A stretch of DNA of 64,000 nucleotides from Ethanoligenens harbinense YUAN-3 (GCF_000178115.2 NC_014828.1:1767310-1831309); one strand, 5' to 3'. Shown: positions 34,675 through 50,413, numbered from the stretch's first letter. A program made the numbers and translations. The notes: generated by a model from the letters alone, not told the origin.

Positions 34675-34760
34675 GCCGGTGTGATGGAATGGTAGACGTA
34701 GTGGACTCAAAATCCACCGCTGGCAACAGCGTGCCGGTTCGAGTCCGGCCACCGGCACCA
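34675..34760 (+). tRNA. tRNA-Leu (anticodon CAA)
   Basis: 86 nt with encoded CCA. Acceptor stem GCCGGTG/CACCGGC, anticodon stem GTGGA/TCCAC with loop CTCAAAA (anticodon CAA at positions 3-5), a long variable arm CGCTGGCAACAGCG as expected for class II tRNA-Leu, and TTCGAGTCC T-loop. It marks the left border of the accessory region. Confidence 0.96.
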
Positions 34761-34763
34761 AGT

Positions 34764-34810
34764 TAAAAGCTACATTTATTGTGTTTTTGTACAATGAATG
34801 TAGCTTTTTT
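34764..34810 (+). terminator. terminator of tRNA-Leu
   Basis: AAAAGCTACATT pairs with AATGTAGCTTTT, extended by ATTGT/ACAAT, followed by T-rich sequence. Confidence 0.85.
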
Positions 34811-34874
34811 ATGTATGAAAATAGACTGATACAGATGCCGTTTCTTACCTTATATGACAGAAAGGATGTTCACA

Positions 34875-35774
34875 ATGAGATATGAAGTATTTGAAATTCC
34901 GGCTAAAGCAAAGGCGCCCTTGAGGGTGGCAGCTTATTGCCGGGTTAGTACACCGTCCGAAGAACAGCAGAACAGTCTGGAAACGCAGGTACAATATTAC
35001 GCCGAGACCATCTCAGGCCATATCGGTTGGACTCTCGCCGGTATCTACGCTGAACAAACCTCAGGCACACGATTCGATACCAGAGAAGCGTTCAATCGCA
35101 TGATAATGGATTGCCGCAAGGGCAAAATCGACTACATCATTACGAAATCAGTCAGCCGCTTCGGTCGAAATACGCTACCGTTCATGCAGGGAATCGAAGA
35201 GTTGCTTCAGCGGGGCATCCCTGTCCACTTTGAGTTGGAGGGGTTGAACTCATCCGACTGGCGCATGAAAAAAATCATCACGGCTGCGGCCGCCGTTGCT
35301 CAGAGAGAAAGCGAGTCAAAAAGCGCGGACATCAAATGGGGTATCCGGCACAGTTTTCAAGAAGGGCATGTTAAGCTCAACTACAGTCAGTTTCTCGGTT
35401 ACACAAAGGATGCAAATGGGAAGCTGGTCGTAGTGGAGGGTGAGGCAGAGGTTGTCCGGCTAATCTATGACCTATATTTGAAAGGATATGGCTGCCGTAA
35501 AATCAAGACGCACCTCGAGACAAACGGTATCAAAACGGCAACAGGCAAAATCGTTTGGAGCACCTCAACAATAGACCGCATCCTCTCCAATGAAAAATAT
35601 ATTGGGACCGTATTGTCGCAGAAAACTTTTGTGGAAAACTGCCTGACGCATAAGCAAATGCAAAACACGGGGCAATTTTCTAAATATGTGATCGAAGGTA
35701 ACCACGAGGCGATCATCAGTAAAGAAGTTTTTGAGGAGGTGCAACAAAGAAAACAGGGCGTTCCAGTCAGATAA
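34875..35774 (+). pseudogene. large serine recombinase, C-terminally truncated
   Basis: 299 residues from ATG 34875 (AAAGG 9 nt upstream). Resolvase domain with the catalytic Ser in AAYCRVSTPSEEQQNS (near residue 24) and Arg residues in SVSRFGRNT; then the recombinase domain (SQFLGYTKDANGKLVV, NEKYIGT) and part of the zinc-ribbon region. Members are usually about 500-550 residues; the coiled-coil and C-terminal DNA-binding part are missing and an IS3 remnant lies just beyond. It is probably the decayed integrase of an element next to the tRNA. Confidence 0.8.
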
Positions 35775-39553: not shown

Positions 39554-41086
39554 TCAAATCAACGGGCACGCCCCCCAAGGCATGAGGTTTTCAACATCCG
39601 CGCCATTGGGCGCTTCGGTGAAAATCTTTGTGAGGTACTCAAAAGGCACAAGACCATTCTCCCTGGCAGAGACGATCAAGCTGTAATAGATTGCGCTGGC
39701 TTTTGCACCGTTTGGCGTGTTGGAAAACAGCCAGTTCTTCCGTCCCATTACAAAAGGTCGAATGGCGTTTTCCGCGCGATTGTTACTGATTTCCAGCCGT
39801 CCGTCCAACAGATACCGCACAAGATACATGCGCTGTGACTGTGCATAATGGATTGCTTTACCCATCAGGGTTTTAGGCAGTTCCCGGAGCGATCCGACCC
39901 AGGCGTAGAACGCCTCAACCACCGGTTTACTTTGCTGTTCGCGTTCCTTCAAACGATCTTCCGGGGTCAGCAAAGTGAACTGTTTCTCCAAATGAAACAG
40001 CCTGTCACAGTAAGCAATCCCCTTTGCGGCGTCAGACGATTTCCGTTTATCCTTCGGCAGTGTTTGCAGCGCTTCGTCAAATTTCCGACGCAGATGCGCC
40101 CAACAGCCCACCACGGTGATTCGGTCAGGCAGCTTGTGGTATCCGTCATAACCATCTGCATGGAGAAAACCTGAAAAATCCTCTAAGAAGTCTTTCGGAC
40201 GGATATGCTTTCGATCCCGCTGGTAGTCATACAGCACAATCTGGCGCTTAGCCTCGCCGCTTGTACGATAAAGCCACATGTAACTTTTACTCTGGGCGGG
40301 CTTGCCGTCCTCATGCAGCACCTGAAGGGTGGTTTCGTCTGCGTGAAGGACTTGATGATTGCATAGCTGTCGCTTCATTTCCTGATAAATTGGCTCCAGC
40401 CAATCTTCACAGGCTCTGATGAGCCAGTTGGACATGGTTTGACGTGAGAGCAGAATGCCGCTTTGCGCCCACTCCTGCTCTTGCCGATAAAGCGGGCTGC
40501 CCATCACAAATTTTTGCACGGCGATATGGGCGACGGATTCGGGTGATGCGAACCCTCCCTTGATGACGGGTTTTGGCATCTCCGCCTTGACAATCGGCAC
40601 ACGATCAGAGGACTCCTCGCAGTGGCGGCAGGCATAGACGTGCCGTACATGGCGTACAATCACGGCTTTTGCCGGGATGATTTTCAGTTCCTCACGGATG
40701 TCTTCCCCCATTTTGTGCAGAGGACAACCGCAGTCCGGACAGATACGCGCCTCGATCGGCAGCTCGTGTTCAATGGTCTCAACAGGTAAATCTTCCGGCA
40801 ACTTGTCGGTGGTCAGGCGCGTCTTTCTGCGGTAATGCGCCTTGACCTCGGTGGTTTCCGGCTCTGGCACGGTCAAATCGGCGGTTTGCTCTGCTTCGTT
40901 AAACAGACATAATTGTTCGTTGTCCGTCTGTTCACTGGACGCGCCGAATTGCTTACGTTTGGCCAGGCGGAATTGCTCCATCAGCCACTGAATCTGCTGT
41001 TTTAGCTCGGCAATCTGCTCCGCCTGTTTGAGAAAATTCTCGTAAACAGAAAGCGGTATTTCAATTGTTTTTTCTTGTTTTTCCAT
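39554..41086 (-). CDS. tnpC: IS66 transposase TnpC
   Basis: 510 residues, DDE transposase of IS66. A Leu/Gln-rich N-terminal helix (10-45) and KRKQFGASSE, a zinc-finger region (CPDCGCPL, YACRHCEE), then the DDE core (HADETTLQVL, FLHADGYDGYHKL, and NNRAENAIRPFVMGRKNWLF with the Glu). The stop codon lies inside the left inverted repeat. It carries out strand transfer with TnpA and TnpB as accessory proteins. Confidence 0.96.
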   Translation of the reverse strand: MEKQEKTIEIPLSVYENFLKQAEQIAELKQQIQWLMEQFRLAKRKQFGASSEQTDNEQLCLFNEAEQTADLTVPEPETTEVKAHYRRKTRLTTDKLPEDLPVETIEHELPIEARICPDCGCPLHKMGEDIREELKIIPAKAVIVRHVRHVYACRHCEESSDRVPIVKAEMPKPVIKGGFASPESVAHIAVQKFVMGSPLYRQEQEWAQSGILLSRQTMSNWLIRACEDWLEPIYQEMKRQLCNHQVLHADETTLQVLHEDGKPAQSKSYMWLYRTSGEAKRQIVLYDYQRDRKHIRPKDFLEDFSGFLHADGYDGYHKLPDRITVVGCWAHLRRKFDEALQTLPKDKRKSSDAAKGIAYCDRLFHLEKQFTLLTPEDRLKEREQQSKPVVEAFYAWVGSLRELPKTLMGKAIHYAQSQRMYLVRYLLDGRLEISNNRAENAIRPFVMGRKNWLFSNTPNGAKASAIYYSLIVSARENGLVPFEYLTKIFTEAPNGADVENLMPWGACPLI

Positions 41087-41117
41087 TCTCTAATTATACC
41101 GGAAAAACCGCATAGAA

Positions 41118-41504
41118 TCAAGAAAAAACGGCATTTTCGTATCCCGATGTGTTACGAAATATTGTGTTCAAGAACTTCGCTGCGGCGAAGCTTTTCTCCA
41201 GCCTTGCGCCATCGATCAGACAAGACAGTTCCTCACTGTTCAGCGTCATTGTGGTTTCCTCGTCTGACGACGGCCAGCGGAAATGTCCGCGTTCCAGCCG
41301 TTTGAAATACAGCCAAAAGCCATCGCCGTCCCACTCCAGTATTTTCAGGCGGTCACGGCTTCGGTTGCAGAACACGAACAGCGCGTCGACAAAAGGGTCG
41401 AGAGAAAAACTGTGCTGCACAAGCGTCATTAGCCCGTTGATCGATTTCCTCATATCCGTGCACCCACAGCAAAGATACACAGGTTTTTCTCCGAACTGCA
41501 TCAC
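41118..41504 (-). CDS. tnpB: IS66 accessory protein TnpB
   Basis: 128 residues with the family pattern: PVYLCCGCTDMRKSINGL, DALFVFCNRSRDRLKIL and FWLYFKRLERG. Its ATG overlaps the tnpA stop (ATGA), the coupling usual for IS66. Required for transposition; the exact role is unknown. Confidence 0.95.
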   Translation of the reverse strand: MMQFGEKPVYLCCGCTDMRKSINGLMTLVQHSFSLDPFVDALFVFCNRSRDRLKILEWDGDGFWLYFKRLERGHFRWPSSDEETTMTLNSEELSCLIDGARLEKSFAAAKFLNTIFRNTSGYENAVFS

Positions 41505-41860
41505 AGCGATCTCAGGATGCGGCAGACTCTCGCCAGCAATTCCAGGTCGGTTTGGGCATTTGCAAGGATATGGCAGCCGGCGATTTCAATGTCTAGGGTG
41601 CCTTCGCCGGCAGTAACAGATTTTGCTTCCGTAAGCTGCGTCCAGCCGTCCGGCACAAGCCCGGTTCCGCGCTTTTGTTTCTCCATAAGCTCCATGCAGG
41701 CAGCTTCCCGTACTTTTTTCTGCCTGTAGTAATAGGTGGCCTTGCTGATGTTTTTTTCTTCGCAAAATGCGTCCACGCTCTGCCCGCCAGCTATTCGCTC
41801 CTTTACCGCCTCGCCCCACTCTGATAGCCGGAACTCCCTCGCGATTTTTTGCGTATCCAT
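41501..41860 (-). CDS. tnpA: IS66 accessory protein TnpA
   Basis: 119 residues from ATG 41860 (TTGGAGTG 4-9 nt upstream). Helix-turn-helix region EWGEAVKERIAGGQSVDAFC and ISKATYYYRQKK, then a short C-terminal beta part (LDIEIAGCHILA). A possible TTG start at 41884 lacks a ribosome site. Confidence 0.9.
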   Translation of the reverse strand: MDTQKIAREFRLSEWGEAVKERIAGGQSVDAFCEEKNISKATYYYRQKKVREAACMELMEKQKRGTGLVPDGWTQLTEAKSVTAGEGTLDIEIAGCHILANAQTDLELLARVCRILRSL

Positions 41861-41975
41861 TTTATTCACTCCAATTTGGTCCAAAACACTCCATTACATG
41901 TTTTGAACCCTTTTGAAGTTCATTGTACCTTCCCCGACACCATGCTTACAAGGTGCGCGCGGTCTTGACGGTTAC

Positions 41976-41983
41976 CCTGAAAA
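41976..41983. repeat. right target-site duplication of IS66
   Basis: CCTGAAAA, matching 39539-39546. It ends 2 bp before the first base of the IS21 terminal repeat. Confidence 0.92.
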
Positions 41984-42062
41984 AGTGTCAACGCCGATTT
42001 GAATTTGCAGGTTTTCGCCAGTTAAAAAATGCATGAAAACAGCGGTAAGGAAATGTTGAAAA

Positions 42063-42860
42063 ATTAGTTTTGGCCCTGCTCGAAAAGGGTGTTGACGATG
42101 TGCTGCTTCTGCTTCATGTACTCCTTTCGCTCTTTAAGGCGATAGCTCTCACCCTTGATATTGACAACGGTGCAGTGGTGCAAAACACGGTCTAGGATTG
42201 CAAAGGCGATAGTGACGTCGGCGAAGATCTCATTCCATTGGGAAAAGGTCTTATTGGAGGTAAAGATCGTGGAGACTCTCTCATAACGTCTCGCAATCAG
42301 TTGAAAAACAGATTCGCCCCCTGAATATCCATCGGGAGATAGCCAATTTCGTCAATGATGAGCATTTTGTACTTGCCCAGAGTTTTGAGCTTGTCCGGTA
42401 GTCTATTCTCAAAATGAGCCTTTTTGAGCTGCTCAATTAGGGTGTGGCAGTTGATGTAATAGGTGGAGAATCGATGCTTGGCGGCAACCAGCCCCAGTGC
42501 TGAGGCCAGATGGGTCTTGCCCACACCGGGCGGGCCGAGGAAGACGATATTCTCTCCGTTTTCAAGGAAACGCATGGTAGCCAGTTCTTCAATCTGGCGC
42601 TTGTCAATGGAGGGCTGGAAACTGAAATCAAAATCCTCCAACGTTTTTTTGATGGGAAATCCGGACATTTGCACCTGCTTTTCATAGGCGCGTCGCCGTT
42701 TTGACAATGCTTCCTCGGCAAAGATATGGTCGAGCACATCTACAACGTTAAGTTCGTCCTTTACAGCTCTTTCAAGATAATTGTCCAATATCTCCAGCGT
42801 GTTTTTCATCTTAAGGCTTTCGAGGTTTTCCCTGAGACGTTCCATCGTCAGTTCCGTCAT
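42063..42860 (-). pseudogene. istB: istB (AAA+ helper ATPase), frameshifted
   Basis: The intact part (42297-42860) shows the IstB start TMERLRENLESLKM, Walker A GPPGVGKTHLASALG and Walker B LIIDEIGYLPM. At 42300 one C is missing: the frame closes after GANLFFN, while the next frame reads QLIARRYERVSTIFTSNKTF and continues to a stop at 42063. A normal 265-residue protein would result if restored. Its stop overlaps nothing; istA ends 4 nt into its start. Confidence 0.88.
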
Positions 42861-44079
42861 AGCAGCACCTCGTCATACCGGTTCAAATCGTGTTGTTGGA
42901 TAGGAAGGTCGATGACACTGTCGCCGTCCAGCAGGGTGTTTTCTGTATCAAAGGATTGCTTGACGGTCAGCCTGCGATAATGATGGGCATTGACGACCAT
43001 GTCTTTTTTTCTGGTAGGATATTCGGTGCAGGGCAATTTGCTTTCCTTCATAGTAGACAGCAAGCACGTTGTCCAATGCTACGACTGCCACATCTTCGCC
43101 GGCGTATTCCGATGGCACGGAATACTGATTACCGCCGTACGAGATGAGGCAGTCTTTTTGTACCCGGCGCAGATTGATTTTGTCGATGATATATTCACGT
43201 TTAAGAGGGTTAAGGCCCTCTTTTTTTAGTCTCTCGAAGGGAATTTCATTTGTTGTGGCGTGGACTTTCCCATTGACCTTATTACACCATGCGAGGGCCT
43301 GGCCATTGAGGTCGTCAAGTGAAGAGTACTTGATGCCAATCATGAAATTATCCCGTACGAACTGTACCGTGCGCTCTATTTTACCCTTTGTCTGGCCTCG
43401 GTATGGCCGGCACAGCACATGGCTTGAACCCATAGAATCCGGCGAAATCCTCAAACTGCCGGTTGAGGGTACTGTCTTCCTGCTTCAGCAGCCGTTTGAT
43501 GACGACCTGCTTCATGTTGTCATACAGAATTTCCTCCGGGTAACCGCCTAAATACCGGAACGCGTTGGCATGGCAGCGGATCAGAGTGTTGGTACTCATG
43601 TTGGTCACAAACTCTATGTACCGTGTCCGCGAGTACCCCAAAATGAACAGAAAACAGTACAGCTTTTTCAGCTTCCCATCCTCCGGCACGGTGTGATCCT
43701 CAAAAAACGCCCAGTCCATCTGCCCTTGAAGTCCCGGCATCGTTTCAAACCGCACCGTTGCTTTCTCGTCCAACTGTTCCTTCTTGTTTCGCACGTATTC
43801 CCGCACGATGCTGTGCCCACCCTCGAAGCCCTGCTCCTGAATTTTCTCCAGTATCCGCTCCGCTGAGTACGGCGCTTCCTCCAGCCATACCGTTATCTGC
43901 TCCTTGTAGGGGTCCAGCTTCGACGGCTTCGTTGCGCTCAGGCTGTATACCGGTCGCGCCTCGCTCTCGGCGTATTTCTTCGCCGTCCTCGGGTCAATGT
44001 TGTACTTGCGCGCTATCTCTGTGTAGCTCAGTCCTTTTTGCCGGTCGCTTCGGATATCCATCCGGTTTGCTCCTTCCAT
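42857..44079 (-). pseudogene. istA: istA (IS21 transposase), two frameshifts
   Basis: N-terminal HTH (RMDIRSDRQKGLSYTEIARKY), then the DDE core (LQGQMDWAFFEDHTV, ILYDNMKQVV). Near 43400 the frame changes: the protein resumes as CRPYRGQTKGKIERTVQFV. A second shift occurs in an A7 run near 43010: YQKK continues as DMVVNAHHYRRLTVKQSFD to the end at 42857. About 400 residues if repaired. The element cannot transpose without help. Confidence 0.88.
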
Positions 44080-44604: not shown

Positions 44605-44751
44605 ATGAAAACAAAAACTGAGTTTGAGATTCCTAAAGTGTTTTGGAAGTTTTATGATGAATACAGGCGAAATGTGATTTCTTTGAGCGAGTTTTCACGG
44701 TGTACCGGATTGAGCATTGGAAAAATCAAAGTTTATCTTGAAGCTCTGTAA
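44605..44751 (+). CDS. small protein, 48 residues, unknown
   Basis: Frame MKTKTEFEIPKVFWKFYDEY ... TGLSIGKIKVYLEAL with GGAGGGT 5 nt before the ATG. The C-terminal half (SLSEFSRCTGLSIGKIKVYL) looks like a helix-turn-helix, so a small DNA-binding protein is possible. It precedes the restriction-modification pair by 93 nt and may be its regulator or an unrelated mobile-element gene. Confidence 0.6.
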   Translation: MKTKTEFEIPKVFWKFYDEYRRNVISLSEFSRCTGLSIGKIKVYLEAL

Positions 44752-46417: not shown

Positions 46418-46522
46418 CTGCTTCATCTGCAAGGTGGCATACAGAGCCGTTAAGAGCCTTATAGCCAGGCGACTTTATTATTGAGCATGTTAATTTTCCC
46501 TTCCAGCTTTTTGATCTGTGCC
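46418..46522. repeat. duplicated gene tail, copy 1
   Basis: About 105 bp closely resembling 46942-47050. On the minus strand it encodes AQIKKLEGKINMLNNKVAWL, a near copy of the C-terminus of the 285-residue membrane protein, but detached from any body. Confidence 0.75.
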
Positions 46523-46768
46523 GTAGACAGCAATTACATTGGGGTCATTTCTGTCCATGATATAGGTGTCTCTTTTCTCACTAAAAACAGACTGTATTGT
46601 ACTGCCTGATTTGCGTAAAACAAAACCGTCTTTTTCATCGGTAATAGGTTCAAACCAGAGCGTAGTTCCGTTATTATATTTTTTGATTATGCCATAGGAA
46701 AGCTCCTGCTTTTCCGGAGTAGTTTCTGTAACTTCTTTGCCTGTTATCAAATATTCAGTAACGTCCAT
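46490..46768 (-). CDS. small unknown protein, 92 residues
   Basis: Starts MDVTEYLITGKEVTETT behind GGAGGGATAAGG. Charged, no membrane segment; I recognise no family. Its last dozen codons read through the duplicated tail repeat in another frame, so the C-terminus may be a by-product of that rearrangement. Last of a five-gene minus-strand run. Confidence 0.6.
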   Translation of the reverse strand: MDVTEYLITGKEVTETTPEKQELSYGIIKKYNNGTTLWFEPITDEKDGFVLRKSGSTIQSVFSEKRDTYIMDRNDPNVIAVYGTDQKAGREN

Positions 46769-46791
46769 TTTTCCTTATCCCTCCATTCTCA

Positions 46792-46929
46792 TCATAGAAA
46801 TATTGTACCAAAAAACAATTGCAGCCACAACCGATCCTTAAAATCGTTATGTTCGGGAATTGCCAAGTGGACTATACAGTCCATAGCTTCCTCGTAAGAT
46901 AGCTTTCGCTCCCACTGCTTTTCAAGCAT
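46792..46929 (-). CDS. very small protein, 45 residues, unknown
   Basis: Frame MLEKQWERKLSYEEAMDCIV ... LQLFFGTIFL with AAGGAAG 9 nt before the ATG. Acidic/helical start and a hydrophobic end. It fits between the 285- and 92-residue genes in the same direction, 23 nt before the latter, which supports it as a gene. Confidence 0.5.
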   Translation of the reverse strand: MLEKQWERKLSYEEAMDCIVHLAIPEHNDFKDRLWLQLFFGTIFL

Positions 46930-46941
46930 ATAAGTATACTT

Positions 46942-47050
46942 CCTTGCCTCATCTGTAAAGTAGCATACAGAGCCGTTAAGAGCATCCTACAGCCAGCCAA
47001 CTTTATCATGAAGCGTGTTGATCTTTCCTTCCAGTTTCTTGATCTGTGCT
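46942..47050. repeat. duplicated gene tail, copy 2 (in situ)
   Basis: Contains the true 3' end of the 285-residue gene; copy 1 is at 46418-46522. Confidence 0.75.
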
Positions 47051-47844
47051 GTTTGATAGGAAAGTTCCCGCAGCATGATATTATGCGCCTTCAAAATGTC
47101 CTGCTGCCCCTGTTCCATAAGGCGCTTATGGGAAAAATCATCATACTGCAAAATGGCTTCCTGTAAAGTGGCGGCCTTGCCGTTGGCAAAGCTACGATAG
47201 AAGAACTCTATGGCCTCACTGAAACGGTAATCTGGCGGTACGAACGAGATCGGCGCCGAAAGTTCGTTGAGCCGAACGCTCAATTCCGCATCCAATGTTT
47301 CAACCTCCTGCTGCTTTGTCTGTATCACTATTTTGGCGCGGAGGACGGAAAAAACGGTTGTAACAATGCTTAACATCATCATGAGCGGCAGGAAAAATAG
47401 CACCACGGGTGCCAATACATTTTCTACAATGAGATAGCGCAAAAACGTAATGGGGATTCCAAACCACAAGGGAACTTTGCCCGGCGCAATGATTTCGCTG
47501 ATTTTGGCGGGCAGCCACAAATGTCCATACCATGCGTCATAAAGCGTCAGCCATTTTACTCCGTTTGCATCGTGCTTGACGTTGCAGACAATTAGAAAGA
47601 GAATGACCCACGGAACAGCAAACAGCAGCGTCCGAGAAATTGCCGATGTAAGCGGCAAAAGGAAAGCCGAGGAAACAGTGTGCTGTGCCTTATGTAGTTC
47701 ATCTTCTGCGACCTGCTTCCTTGCTGCTGTAGCCTCATACTGCCGGACAGGCTCTATCAAGTCCCGGTACAGGTTGAACAAATCTGCAAAGCTGCCGATT
47801 TTAGTCGCGACGCCTCCCGCAACTGGCGGATTCATTTCGCTCAT
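46987..47844 (-). CDS. membrane protein with coiled-coil tail, unknown
   Basis: 285 residues. Soluble start (1-65), membrane helices at about 68-88 (LLFAVPWVILFLIVCNV), 125-145 and 150-172 (VVLFFLPLMMMLSIVTTVFSVL), then a coiled coil (175-200) and a second helical stretch (240-280, QIKKLEGKINTLHDKVGWL). No family recognised. In an operon-like run with 47857 and 48077 genes (spacing 12 and 40 nt) whose promoter region contains a 36-bp inverted repeat shared with an Xre regulator. A defence or regulatory membrane complex is possible but unproven. Confidence 0.75.
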   Translation of the reverse strand: MSEMNPPVAGGVATKIGSFADLFNLYRDLIEPVRQYEATAARKQVAEDELHKAQHTVSSAFLLPLTSAISRTLLFAVPWVILFLIVCNVKHDANGVKWLTLYDAWYGHLWLPAKISEIIAPGKVPLWFGIPITFLRYLIVENVLAPVVLFFLPLMMMLSIVTTVFSVLRAKIVIQTKQQEVETLDAELSVRLNELSAPISFVPPDYRFSEAIEFFYRSFANGKAATLQEAILQYDDFSHKRLMEQGQQDILKAHNIMLRELSYQTAQIKKLEGKINTLHDKVGWL

Positions 47845-47856
47845 ACGATTTTCTCC

Positions 47857-48036
47857 TTATCCTTGGTGCAAAGCATTTTTTACTGCATGAGCATCCGTGA
47901 CAGAAAGCACGGTCATCGCCGCCTCTGGCGAGGATAAGTATTGCTCCTCTGCTTTCTGCTGTGCCTCCACCAAAATATTGATGGCCTTTTCGGTTGCACG
48001 GAACAGGTCTAAGTACAATTCTTTATAATCCAGCAT
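47857..48036 (-). CDS. small acidic protein, 59 residues, unknown
   Basis: From ATG 48036 with AGGAGAAAG upstream: MLDYKELYLDLFRATEKAI and a helical remainder. Probably a small helical partner of its neighbours. The frame upstream of 48036 lacks support. Confidence 0.6.
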   Translation of the reverse strand: MLDYKELYLDLFRATEKAINILVEAQQKAEEQYLSSPEAAMTVLSVTDAHAVKNALHQG

Positions 48037-48076
48037 TTTTCTTTCTCCTATTAGTGACTTCCTCATGTGTGAGGAA

Positions 48077-48484
48077 TCAGTCCTCGCCAGTCTCAAAATT
48101 GACAACTAAACTCTCGATTGCGCATCTTTCCTTTACCGCTTTTTCTTGTAAGGATTCTATGTAAGCGCGTTCTTCCTCGGTTTCTGACTCACATTCACCT
48201 TCATCCTCAGAATTTTTTTCCGGCGGCACTGTTTGGTTCCATAAAATCATGCCAGAATGTTCCATCCAAATCACGGCATCCAAAAAACCGATCATGTGAA
48301 AGTTTCGTTCATTGGCCGTCATATAAAAATCATGCTGTTCCTCATACGATTTCAAACGGTAACGACGCTCCATAAATGCCTTGAAATGCCGATCATTTGC
48401 CAGTGCAATTTTTAAACCCGCATAGCATTCCTCAAAGCTTTCTTTCGCAATGCTTTGCATGGTTTTGTATGTTTCTCTGTTCAA
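48077..48484 (-). CDS. unknown soluble protein, 135 residues
   Basis: I start at TTG 48484, 8 nt after GGAGG; ATG 48508 has no ribosome site. Helical N-terminal half (SIAKESFEECYAGLKIALAND), a central FHMIGFLDAVIWMEHSG and a strongly acidic stretch (EDEGECESETEEERAYIESL). No family recognised. First gene of the minus-strand run beside the Xre operator. Confidence 0.6.
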   Translation of the reverse strand: MNRETYKTMQSIAKESFEECYAGLKIALANDRHFKAFMERRYRLKSYEEQHDFYMTANERNFHMIGFLDAVIWMEHSGMILWNQTVPPEKNSEDEGECESETEEERAYIESLQEKAVKERCAIESLVVNFETGED

Positions 48485-48541
48485 AATGAGCACCTCCAAC
48501 AGTTTCATATATAAAGCATATCACACATGCGAGCAACTTTG

Positions 48542-48577
48542 CAACGTGTAATATAATATAAATTATATTACACGTTG
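48542..48577. promoter_or_regulatory. 36-bp perfect inverted repeat between divergent genes
   Basis: Arms CAACGTGTAATATAAT and its exact complement, separated by ATAA. Both arms hold TATAAT-like -10 boxes, so a protein bound here should control both the minus-strand run and the Xre regulator gene 53 bp to its right. The likeliest ligand is that regulator. Confidence 0.8.
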
Positions 48578-48629
48578 TCGATATGACACAAAAAATTCCA
48601 TAAGCTATATGTAAGAGGTGATATAGCCT

Positions 48630-48854
48630 ATGGAACGCCGCCATAATGAAAAATATAAAAAGCTGGGATTGAATATCGCATACTACCGCAAGGAACGCGG
48701 CCTATCTCAGATGCAGCTTGCTGATGCCATCGACATCAGCCGCACCCATATGTCTCGAATTGAAAACAACGACTGCGCTGTTTCGCTCGATGTGATTTTC
48801 AGCATTGCTGATGCGTTGAACATTGCAGTTGAAAAACTATTTGAATTTCGATGA
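48630..48854 (+). CDS. Xre-family HTH regulator
   Basis: 74 residues; a single Cro/CI-type helix-turn-helix: LGLNIAYYRKERGLSQMQLA then DISRTHMSRIENNDCAVSLD and IADALNIAVEKLFEF. GAGGTGAT lies 8 nt before the ATG. Probably autoregulated through the 36-bp repeat. There is no sensor domain, so another factor or stoichiometry must set its activity. Confidence 0.92.
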   Translation: MERRHNEKYKKLGLNIAYYRKERGLSQMQLADAIDISRTHMSRIENNDCAVSLDVIFSIADALNIAVEKLFEFR

Positions 48855-49031
48855 GGCGATAATAAGAAGTATTACTGTTCACTTTGCTATATGAGAATTA
48901 CAACTGAATTGGACATGGAAAATGTTACAGTTATGGCATTAAATCATATGAAAAAGTTCCATATTATACCCCATATGAGTATTTATCAACCTGCTATTCA
49001 CGGTAGAAAGGAGAAATATATAACGAATAAC

Positions 49032-49793
49032 ATGTATTGCATATTTAACATTTTTTTTCGTTTGTCAACAAAAGTACAAAGATGGTCAGTAAAGCATTCT
49101 GAAAACAGCATACTAAAACAATATAAAATAATTGTATTTTTTATTTGTTTGCTATTATTAGTTTTGTTTGCAGCAACTAACGCTATTTTTCTGGGATATT
49201 TATTTCTGGCAGCATTTTTGAGTTGGTATGTTATGAATTTGGTTACTGCCTCTTTTATAATGTTGTCGTCAATTAGAGGGTTTTTTAAGAACGCATTTTC
49301 TTTCTCAGTCGTACTTTTTGTGCTATTGTTACTTTTGTTGGTTCCTTTGGAAAATGTATTAAGTAATACAGTTGGAACATCAGTTGCGGGAATAATTATT
49401 CTTGTTTCATCATTATTAATTGCGTGCTTAATATGGTCTTTCATAAGCTGTTGTGCTGACACTTCAGTCTCAATCCTTGCAAACGCAATTCTTACTGGGC
49501 TAGTTGGAATTGTTTCACAGATATGCAATTATTTATTATTATTTTTACCATCAAATATAGCTGTTAATCTTCCCATATTTGAAACTTTTGTAAATGAAAT
49601 GGGCAATTATGGATATACAGTAACACAGGCATTACAACTTGCTGTTAATACATTGTTTTTTCCGATTGCTGTAATTTTAGGAGTAGCAACTATTATTTGT
49701 GCACTGAAAAAATATTGGATTACTAAATATAATGATGGTCAAGATTTAATAGCTTACAGCAAAAAAAGTGAAGCACATAAGCCTTCCACCTAA
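49032..49793 (+). CDS. polytopic membrane protein, unknown
   Basis: 253 residues from ATG 49032; the open frame goes up to 48891 and the true start is unclear (AAAGGAG lies 18 nt before this ATG). About six membrane helices (KIIVFFICLLLLVLFAATN, FLAAFLSWYVMNLVTASFIM, VVLFVLLLLLLVPL, GIIILVSSLLIACLIWSFI, and two further ones) and a short polar C-terminus. Family not recognised. It follows the Xre regulator by 177 nt on the same strand and may be in its regulon. Confidence 0.6.
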   Translation: MYCIFNIFFRLSTKVQRWSVKHSENSILKQYKIIVFFICLLLLVLFAATNAIFLGYLFLAAFLSWYVMNLVTASFIMLSSIRGFFKNAFSFSVVLFVLLLLLLVPLENVLSNTVGTSVAGIIILVSSLLIACLIWSFISCCADTSVSILANAILTGLVGIVSQICNYLLLFLPSNIAVNLPIFETFVNEMGNYGYTVTQALQLAVNTLFFPIAVILGVATIICALKKYWITKYNDGQDLIAYSKKSEAHKPST

Positions 49794-50144
49794 ACGGCAT
49801 ACGCTATCATGTCGAAACTCACAAATAGTTTTTCAAAGATCTGAGTGCATTTTGAGTACAATAATTTCCGCAGCCGCAAACAGGAGACACCAAACGGCAA
49901 ATTAACAATCTTAATTCACGGGAAAACACTAAGAATACCCGGTTATAAAGTCCTGTGAAAAGAGTGGAAATGATGATGAGTCCGCAAACACGCATGGATG
50001 CTGGGTTTGTCGGACATCAAGGCAGCCGTTGATACTGTTTTGATACTATAAATCATTCTCCACAACTTCATATAGAGATGAAAATGTCCGTCGAAACGCT
50101 AAGTTTCAACGGGCAATTTTTGTTGGAGCTTTTGCGCAATAAAT
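49794..50144. other. gene-poor stretch
   Basis: No supported gene. CCGTCGAAAC and GTTTCAACGG (50086-50112) form a hairpin followed by CAATTTTTG and could terminate plus-strand transcription. Confidence 0.4.
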
Positions 50145-50413
50145 CACCGGCTCTGCCGGTGGAATAAAAATCTTTAGATTCAAGGAAACCTCCTTTTGCT
50201 AAAATAGATGCAGGTTTGCCAACCGCATCATCAAGCAAAGAGAGGTTTGTCATGGATGACATACAAAGTTTATCACATTTGAAGTGGAGATGCCAATACC
50301 CTATTGTGTTTGCGCTGAAATACAGTAGGAGGGAGATATATGGAAAGCTAAAAGCTGACATTGGAAAATACTTAGAATGTTGTGTGAGCAAAAGGGTGTT
50401 ACAGGCACTTTGA
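50145..50413 (+). pseudogene. IS200/IS605-family tnpA remnant
   Basis: A CACCGGC-TCT-GCCGGTG hairpin (50145-50161) like those at IS200 left ends, then from ATG 50252 the TnpA start MDDIQSLSHLKWRCQYPIVF and YGKLKADIGKYL. The frame stops after 53 codons, before the catalytic tyrosine, and the right end is gone. Confidence 0.8.

What the first reader, a model, noticed from the sequence alone, without database searches (positions are those of the whole stretch)
46490..49793. Xre-controlled divergent cluster of unknown membrane and small proteins
Five minus-strand genes (135, 59, 285, 45 and 92 residues, including a three-helix membrane protein with coiled coil) and, on the plus strand, an Xre regulator plus a six-helix membrane protein flank a 36-bp perfect inverted repeat. 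No member belongs to a family I recognise, and the cluster lies in an accessory region beside a restriction-modification system. It has the shape of an undescribed defence or bistable membrane system.
Basis: partly seen in the sequence, partly recalled or inferred. Interest (0 to 1): 0.68.

Follow-up and report, generated by a model that had tools for sequence, protein, structure and literature searches.

The report
Repressor with divergent small-protein operon
A bacterial gene switch in which a tiny DNA-binding repressor faces a small-protein operon across a palindrome; this locus is an odd local version, but its small protein belongs to an unnamed family of Clostridia that is almost always paired this way with interchangeable repressors.

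Summary
The genes and the inverted repeat exist, but not as one conserved system. The 135-, 285-, 92- and 300-residue proteins have no full-length relatives in the genomes sampled; only the distal half of the 285-residue protein has distant relatives, which occur singly. The 45- and 92-residue ORFs look like debris around a remnant of a second 285-type gene. Nothing points to defence except the adjacent BglII-like restriction-modification pair.

The 59-residue gene matters most. It belongs to an unnamed small-protein family ("DYKxMY"), mainly in Oscillospirales, with 8 copies in this genome. Of 100 members examined, about 89 face a divergent gene for a small DNA-binding protein (HTH_3, HTH_26 or several ribbon-helix-helix kinds; median gap 81 bp), and the partner has been swapped repeatedly. 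For four Xre recognition-helix classes the spacer carries a class-specific palindrome, usually over the small gene's promoter.

Best reading: the window holds an Xre-repressed divergent operon (135-59-285) with the repeat as operator; the 59-residue protein is a repressed effector of unknown target. Closest known: phage TF-smORF modules and XRE-DUF397 pairs; membership in either is not supported. Defence is unsupported; bistability is untested.

The parts
48630..48854 (+). Xre/HTH_3 regulator, 74 residues, DNA-binding domain only; the probable repressor
   Evidence: Pfam HTH_3 E 5.8e-12; relatives at up to 70% identity stand alone
48542..48577 (.). Inverted repeat, 16-nt arms and 4-nt centre; the probable Xre operator between the two divergent genes
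   Evidence: arm never reached in 1000 shuffles; overlies minus-strand promoter-like sites 48589-48562 and 48581-48553; relatives of this Xre with the same recognition helix carry dyads with a similar YAACNTG half-site
48077..48484 (-). 135-residue protein, first gene of the leftward operon (TTG start after GGAGGT); orphan
   Evidence: no relatives
47857..48036 (-). 59-residue member of the DYKxMY small-protein family
   Evidence: Family; coding test; AlphaFold single helix 4-35
46987..47844 (-). 285-residue protein with two or three hydrophobic helices and a distal helical domain shared with scattered clostridial membrane proteins
   Evidence: hydrophobicity; 12 nt behind the 59-residue gene
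46462..46530 (-). Remnant of the 3' end of a second 285-type gene
   Evidence: Repeats D1/D2; protein match residues 263-285 at 74%; sequence
46490..46768 (-). 92-residue ORF, probably truncated; membership doubtful
   Evidence: Ends out of frame in the remnant; no real relative
46792..46929 (-). 45-residue ORF, probably not an intact gene
   Evidence: No family; no clear RBS
48891..49793 (+). 300-residue hydrophobic protein downstream of Xre; membership uncertain, start uncertain
   Evidence: 30.5% GC; no relative in 146 other order genomes

Best explanation
A divergent, autorepressed gene switch. Xre binds the palindrome between the two transcription units and shuts off its own promoter and the leftward promoter of the 135-59-285 operon. 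When Xre is low (dilution, entry into a cell without it, or inactivation) the operon is expressed. The 59-residue protein is the conserved output: a small, mainly single-helix effector that acts on something common to many Clostridia rather than on the repressor beside it. Genes of this family recruit whichever small repressor is at hand. In this genome the module is rearranged: an Xre of another subfamily and an orphan 135-residue gene now stand upstream, and a membrane protein is appended downstream. Shown by sequence: the genes, the palindrome, the family, the conserved divergent pairing, and class-specific palindromes over the small-gene promoter in relatives. Inferred: repression (from operator position), one transcript, and binding of this palindrome by this Xre. 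Unknown: target, inducer and benefit.
For: About 89 of 100 family members face a small DNA-binding gene: 81 assigned by similarity, median gap 81 bp; six further HTH partners read by eye; two separated from their Xre by an inserted transposase gene. Xre-profile count 61 of 100 against 0.42 at random positions, maximum 3 of 500 draws. Palindromes follow the recognition helix: 21/21, 11/13, 6/8 and 4/4 in four classes, with almost no cross-class match, and overlap the small gene's -35 to -10 region in 32 of 45. Small-gene promoter pattern in 62 of 81 spacers against 8 of 81 shuffled. Protein-level constraint: pN/pS 0.20. Repeated partner swaps, including between different folds. Window palindrome and the similar half-site in relatives of this Xre.
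Against: In the window the Xre is of another subfamily and a 135-residue gene intervenes, so the conserved pairing is not intact here. Three of eight copies in this genome have no partner. No binding or expression data. The Xre could activate one side. Dyad patterns were chosen after inspection, and the loci are related, so p-values are nominal. Loci were picked by similarity to one subset of the family.
Confidence: 0.6

Rival explanations
1. Anti-repressor or toxin-antitoxin reading: the 59-residue protein works by binding the paired DNA-binding protein, either relieving repression (as SinI does to SinR) or as a toxin neutralised by it.
For: Two small genes side by side, HTH or RHH partner, several copies per genome, patchy distribution. 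Partner classes are not random on the tree: 39 changes against 50.8 shuffled.
Against: Near-identical small proteins face partners of unrelated folds and classes, hard to square with a specific complex. Unpartnered copies exist. The genes are divergent rather than in one operon. No toxin family is hit.
Confidence: 0.15
2. Local accretion: apart from an ordinary self-controlled Xre gene, the cluster is island debris without a joint function.
For: No conserved co-occurrence of the 135, 285, 92 and 300 genes; remnant of a 285-type gene and a truncated ORF; insertion-sequence genes close by; A+T-rich 300-residue ORF.
Against: A strong palindrome in the right place, tight spacing with ribosome-binding sites in 135-59-285, and an intact, conserved 59-residue ORF.
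Confidence: 0.2
3. Undescribed defence or abortive-infection system: the 285-residue membrane protein is the effector, the 135- and 59-residue proteins sense or adapt, and Xre keeps it silent.
For: Accessory region beside a BglII-like restriction-modification pair; membrane protein in an Xre-controlled operon.
Against: No PADLOC match; no conserved cluster; relatives of the 59-residue gene sit among unrelated chromosomal genes with no recurrent neighbour.
Confidence: 0.05

Closest known systems
Phage TF-smORF modules (Silpe et al. 2023, PMC10432266)
   Same: A transcription factor gene, Xre in some, facing a divergently transcribed small-protein gene without known domains; minimal two-gene logic.
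   Different: There the factor activates the small gene, the modules are phage-borne, the small proteins are unrelated to each other and inactivate the phage cI repressor. Here the palindrome position predicts repression, the genes are chromosomal and one small-protein family recurs with many different factors.
XRE-DUF397 pairs of Streptomyces (PMC2701414, PMC6262351, PMC10364602)
   Same: Xre regulator next to a small protein of unclear function, many copies per genome; fourteen tested pairs did not behave as toxin-antitoxin systems.
   Different: Co-directional genes, larger Xre protein with a C-terminal domain, DUF397 family. DYKxMY proteins match no Pfam family.
Type II toxin-antitoxin modules
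   Same: Two small genes, one for an HTH or RHH DNA-binding protein, patchy and multi-copy.
   Different: Divergent genes, no toxin family hit, partners of different folds exchanged, unpartnered copies.
SinR/SinI of Bacillus subtilis (from general knowledge)
   Same: Xre protein and a helical small protein of similar size.
   Different: sinI and sinR are co-directional and SinI binds SinR; here the genes are divergent and the DNA-binding partner is interchangeable.

Membership tests
Phage TF-smORF module | Small-protein gene divergent from a transcription factor gene | tested here: met
   for the family; in the window a 135-residue gene intervenes
Phage TF-smORF module | The factor activates the small gene | tested here: inconclusive
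   Dyads overlap the -35 to -10 region in 32 of 45 relatives, which suggests repression; no expression data
Phage TF-smORF module | Carried by a phage | tested here: not met
   No relatives in viral contigs; one weak hit in a faecal phage contig; chromosomal contexts
Phage TF-smORF module | Small protein inactivates a cI repressor | not testable with these tools
   Needs experiment
XRE-DUF397 pair | Small protein has DUF397 | tested here: not met
   No Pfam family in 54 members beyond isolated weak matches
XRE-DUF397 pair | Genes co-directional, Xre first | tested here: not met
   Divergent
Type II toxin-antitoxin | Known toxin family | tested here: not met
Type II toxin-antitoxin | Toxin and antitoxin in one operon | tested here: not met
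   Divergent genes
Type II toxin-antitoxin | Toxicity neutralised by the partner protein | not testable with these tools
   Needs experiment
Known anti-phage defence system | Match to a defence protein model | tested here: not met
   Only generic HTH matches of the Xre; none of note for the 59-residue family

The most novel reading that the evidence does not exclude
DYKxMY proteins are a new clade-specific class of small effector in Clostridia that spreads as minimal modules with exchangeable repressors of different folds, each with its own operator, stacked into arrays in some genomes; they may be selfish or immunity-like switches expressed in a burst on entering a cell that lacks the matching repressor.
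Probability: 0.3. Interest if true: 0.75.

Novelty: new variant of a known kind. Interest (0 to 1): 0.5.

Why it matters
A family of small proteins present in several copies in some clostridial genomes, many of them gut species, has no annotation, yet is so tightly tied to a divergent repressor that the pairing and the likely operator can be read from sequence. One conserved output with interchangeable repressors, of two unrelated folds, is a clean natural test of how regulators are replaced while a target is kept. It would extend the phage TF-smORF logic to bacterial chromosomes. The window's own cluster is a lesser, rearranged example.

Tried and rejected
Family searches of all cluster proteins: nothing but Xre. 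Homologues of the 285-, 135-, 92- and 300-residue proteins: none full-length. A 93-residue gene divergent from a related Xre (L183) as a 135-residue homologue: no similarity. The idea that the '59-residue' signal is a DNA element and not a protein: rejected by codon-position variation and pN/pS 0.20. The idea that the RIRDLRED-type Xre family is dedicated to the small gene: rejected, 3 of 30 sampled loci. A 285-type domain near other family members: none, nor in the genes facing other Xre. Fold search with the 59-residue model: nothing; single-sequence model of the 285-residue protein too poor to search (pLDDT 60). Full-text search for family strings: none.

Full report
WHAT IS THERE. The window lies in a 3,008,576-bp single-contig clostridial genome; the size matches Ethanoligenens harbinense YUAN-3 from memory, not checked. 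On the minus strand are ORFs of 135, 59, 285, 45 and 92 residues; on the plus strand a 74-residue Xre and a hydrophobic 300-residue ORF. The repeat between them has 16-nt perfect arms around a 4-nt centre; an arm of 16 is never reached in 1000 shuffles of the spacer, maximum 11. Short gaps (40 nt from 135 to 59, 12 nt from 59 to 285) with ribosome-binding sites suggest one transcript. The 92-residue ORF ends out of frame in a remnant of a second 285-type gene, so the region downstream of 285 looks like debris of a duplication rather than two further members of a system.

THE CLUSTER IS NOT CONSERVED AS A UNIT. The 135-, 92- and 300-residue proteins have no convincing relatives in the order. 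The 285-residue protein has no full-length relative in 295 order genomes, phages, plasmids, viral contigs or the GTDB contig scan; contig scans reach only close relatives. Its distal part aligns with a few single membrane proteins of other Clostridia, one with a zinc ribbon. The nearest relatives of this Xre stand alone. No defence family is hit.

THE 59-RESIDUE PROTEIN IS A FAMILY. It has 8 copies in this genome and hits in 22 of 294 other genomes of the order. A profile found hits in 20 of 290 other genomes of the class, several of them weak or partial, and in 1 of 148 others across a phylum sample. A GTDB contig scan gave 149 relatives, 80 kept, nearly all Oscillospirales. The core is MPDYKEMYLxLFRATExAINxLIxAQRxCEELY. 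It is a protein: codon-position entropies 0.82/0.52/1.47 and pN/pS 0.20. AlphaFold gives one confident helix, 4-35, and a short second one. No Pfam, NCBIfam, PHROG or PDB family covers it.

IT IS ALMOST ALWAYS FACED BY A SMALL DNA-BINDING GENE. Among 100 members, similarity searches placed a small divergent DNA-binding gene upstream of 81: HTH_3 type 58, HTH_26 type 8, four kinds of ribbon-helix-helix 15; median gap 81 bp (Pfam HTH_3, HTH_26 and Arc for a sample). Reading the rest by eye adds six further HTH partners (L056, L095, L101, L117, L159, L167) and two cases, L112 and L114, where a transposase gene that I read as IS30 separates the small gene from its Xre. That makes 89; two of the remaining members lie at contig edges. 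A count with the Xre profile alone gives 61 of 100 against 0.42 at random positions. Nothing else recurs in the neighbourhood. The linkage is one-sided: of 30 sampled loci of the large RIRDLRED Xre family only 3 have the small gene within 300 bp, and others face zinc-ribbon, membrane or other small proteins.

OPERATORS. The spacers hold palindromes that follow the recognition helix of the partner: GGAC..GTCC in 21/21 of the LYSKYE class and in none of 60 others; GAAC..GTTC in 11/13 of RTYAYYE; AACCT..AGGTT in 6/8 of TGYSKYE; ATGC..GCAT in 4/4 of TYSRYE. In 32 of 45 they overlap the -35 to -10 region of the small gene, where a repressor is expected to bind. In the window the repeat lies over leftward promoter-like sites, and relatives of this Xre with the same recognition helix carry dyads with a similar half-site, YAACNTG, at another spacing.

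SWAPPING. On a tree of the small proteins (38 columns, poorly resolved) partner classes need 39 changes against 50.8 when shuffled: labels are inherited to a degree yet replaced often. Near-identical small proteins face TGYSKYE, LYSKYE and RTYAYYE repressors. L122 holds three units in a row (HTH, HTH, RHH), the first two with truncated small genes. This argues that the small protein does not act by binding its paired repressor.

THE WINDOW'S VERSION. Its 59-residue protein is closest to members faced by LYSKYE-type Xre, yet here it is the second gene behind a 135-residue orphan and faces a different Xre. The window therefore carries a rearranged module with a membrane protein appended.

MECHANISM. 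Most likely Xre represses itself and the 135-59-285 operon from the palindrome; loss of Xre releases the operon; the 59-residue helix acts on a target common to many Clostridia. Shown by sequence: pairing, palindromes, conservation. Inferred: repression, operon, effector role. Unknown: target, inducer, benefit.

KNOWN RELATIVES. Phage TF-smORF modules (PMC10432266) share the layout, but the factor activates and the small proteins are phage-specific. XRE-DUF397 pairs (PMC2701414, PMC10364602) are co-directional and contain DUF397; fourteen tested pairs did not behave as toxin-antitoxin systems. Membership in either is not supported.

CAVEATS. Most loci were chosen by similarity to one subset of the family, so 89% may not hold for distant members. 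Three of eight copies in this genome lack a partner, one of them next to conjugation-type genes. Dyad patterns were defined after inspection and the sequences are related, so p-values are nominal. Bistability cannot be judged from sequence.

Noticed in passing
window 50142-50413 (+): Sub-threshold Rfam match to STnc490 (35.6 bits, cut-off 56) followed by a short ORF that resembles the start of an IS200-type transposase: probably a truncated insertion sequence.
   Followed up: partly
window 34675-35774 (+): tRNA-Leu directly followed by a serine-recombinase-like gene: a likely boundary of the accessory region that holds the cluster.
   Followed up: no
window 39554-44079 (-): Transposase genes that look like IS66 (39554-41884) and an IS21-type pair (42297-44079), the latter with a broken first gene.
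   Followed up: no
window 44605-44751 (+): A 48-residue ORF just upstream of the BglII-like endonuclease, perhaps a small regulator of the restriction-modification pair.
   Followed up: no
L042:4343-4828 (G000:C1:64342-64827): A copy of the 59-residue family broken by a stop codon and still faced by an intact Xre gene with TAGCGGAT-type palindromes in the spacer.
   Followed up: partly
L044:3591-6485 (G000:C1, about 2022090-2024984): An unpartnered member of the family lies between a DUF4406-like gene and a gene that I read as a VirD4-type coupling protein: a conjugation-type operon.
   Followed up: partly
L122:2800-4132: Array of three repressor/small-gene units (HTH, HTH, ribbon-helix-helix); the first two small genes are truncated with the same sequence after the break, as if units had been inserted one after another.
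   Followed up: partly
L223-L252: Many RIRDLRED-type small Xre genes of the order face zinc-ribbon, TM2-like or other membrane proteins, or a second small-protein type (L243, L246), through promoters with dyads: a wider class of minimal divergent switches.
   Followed up: partly
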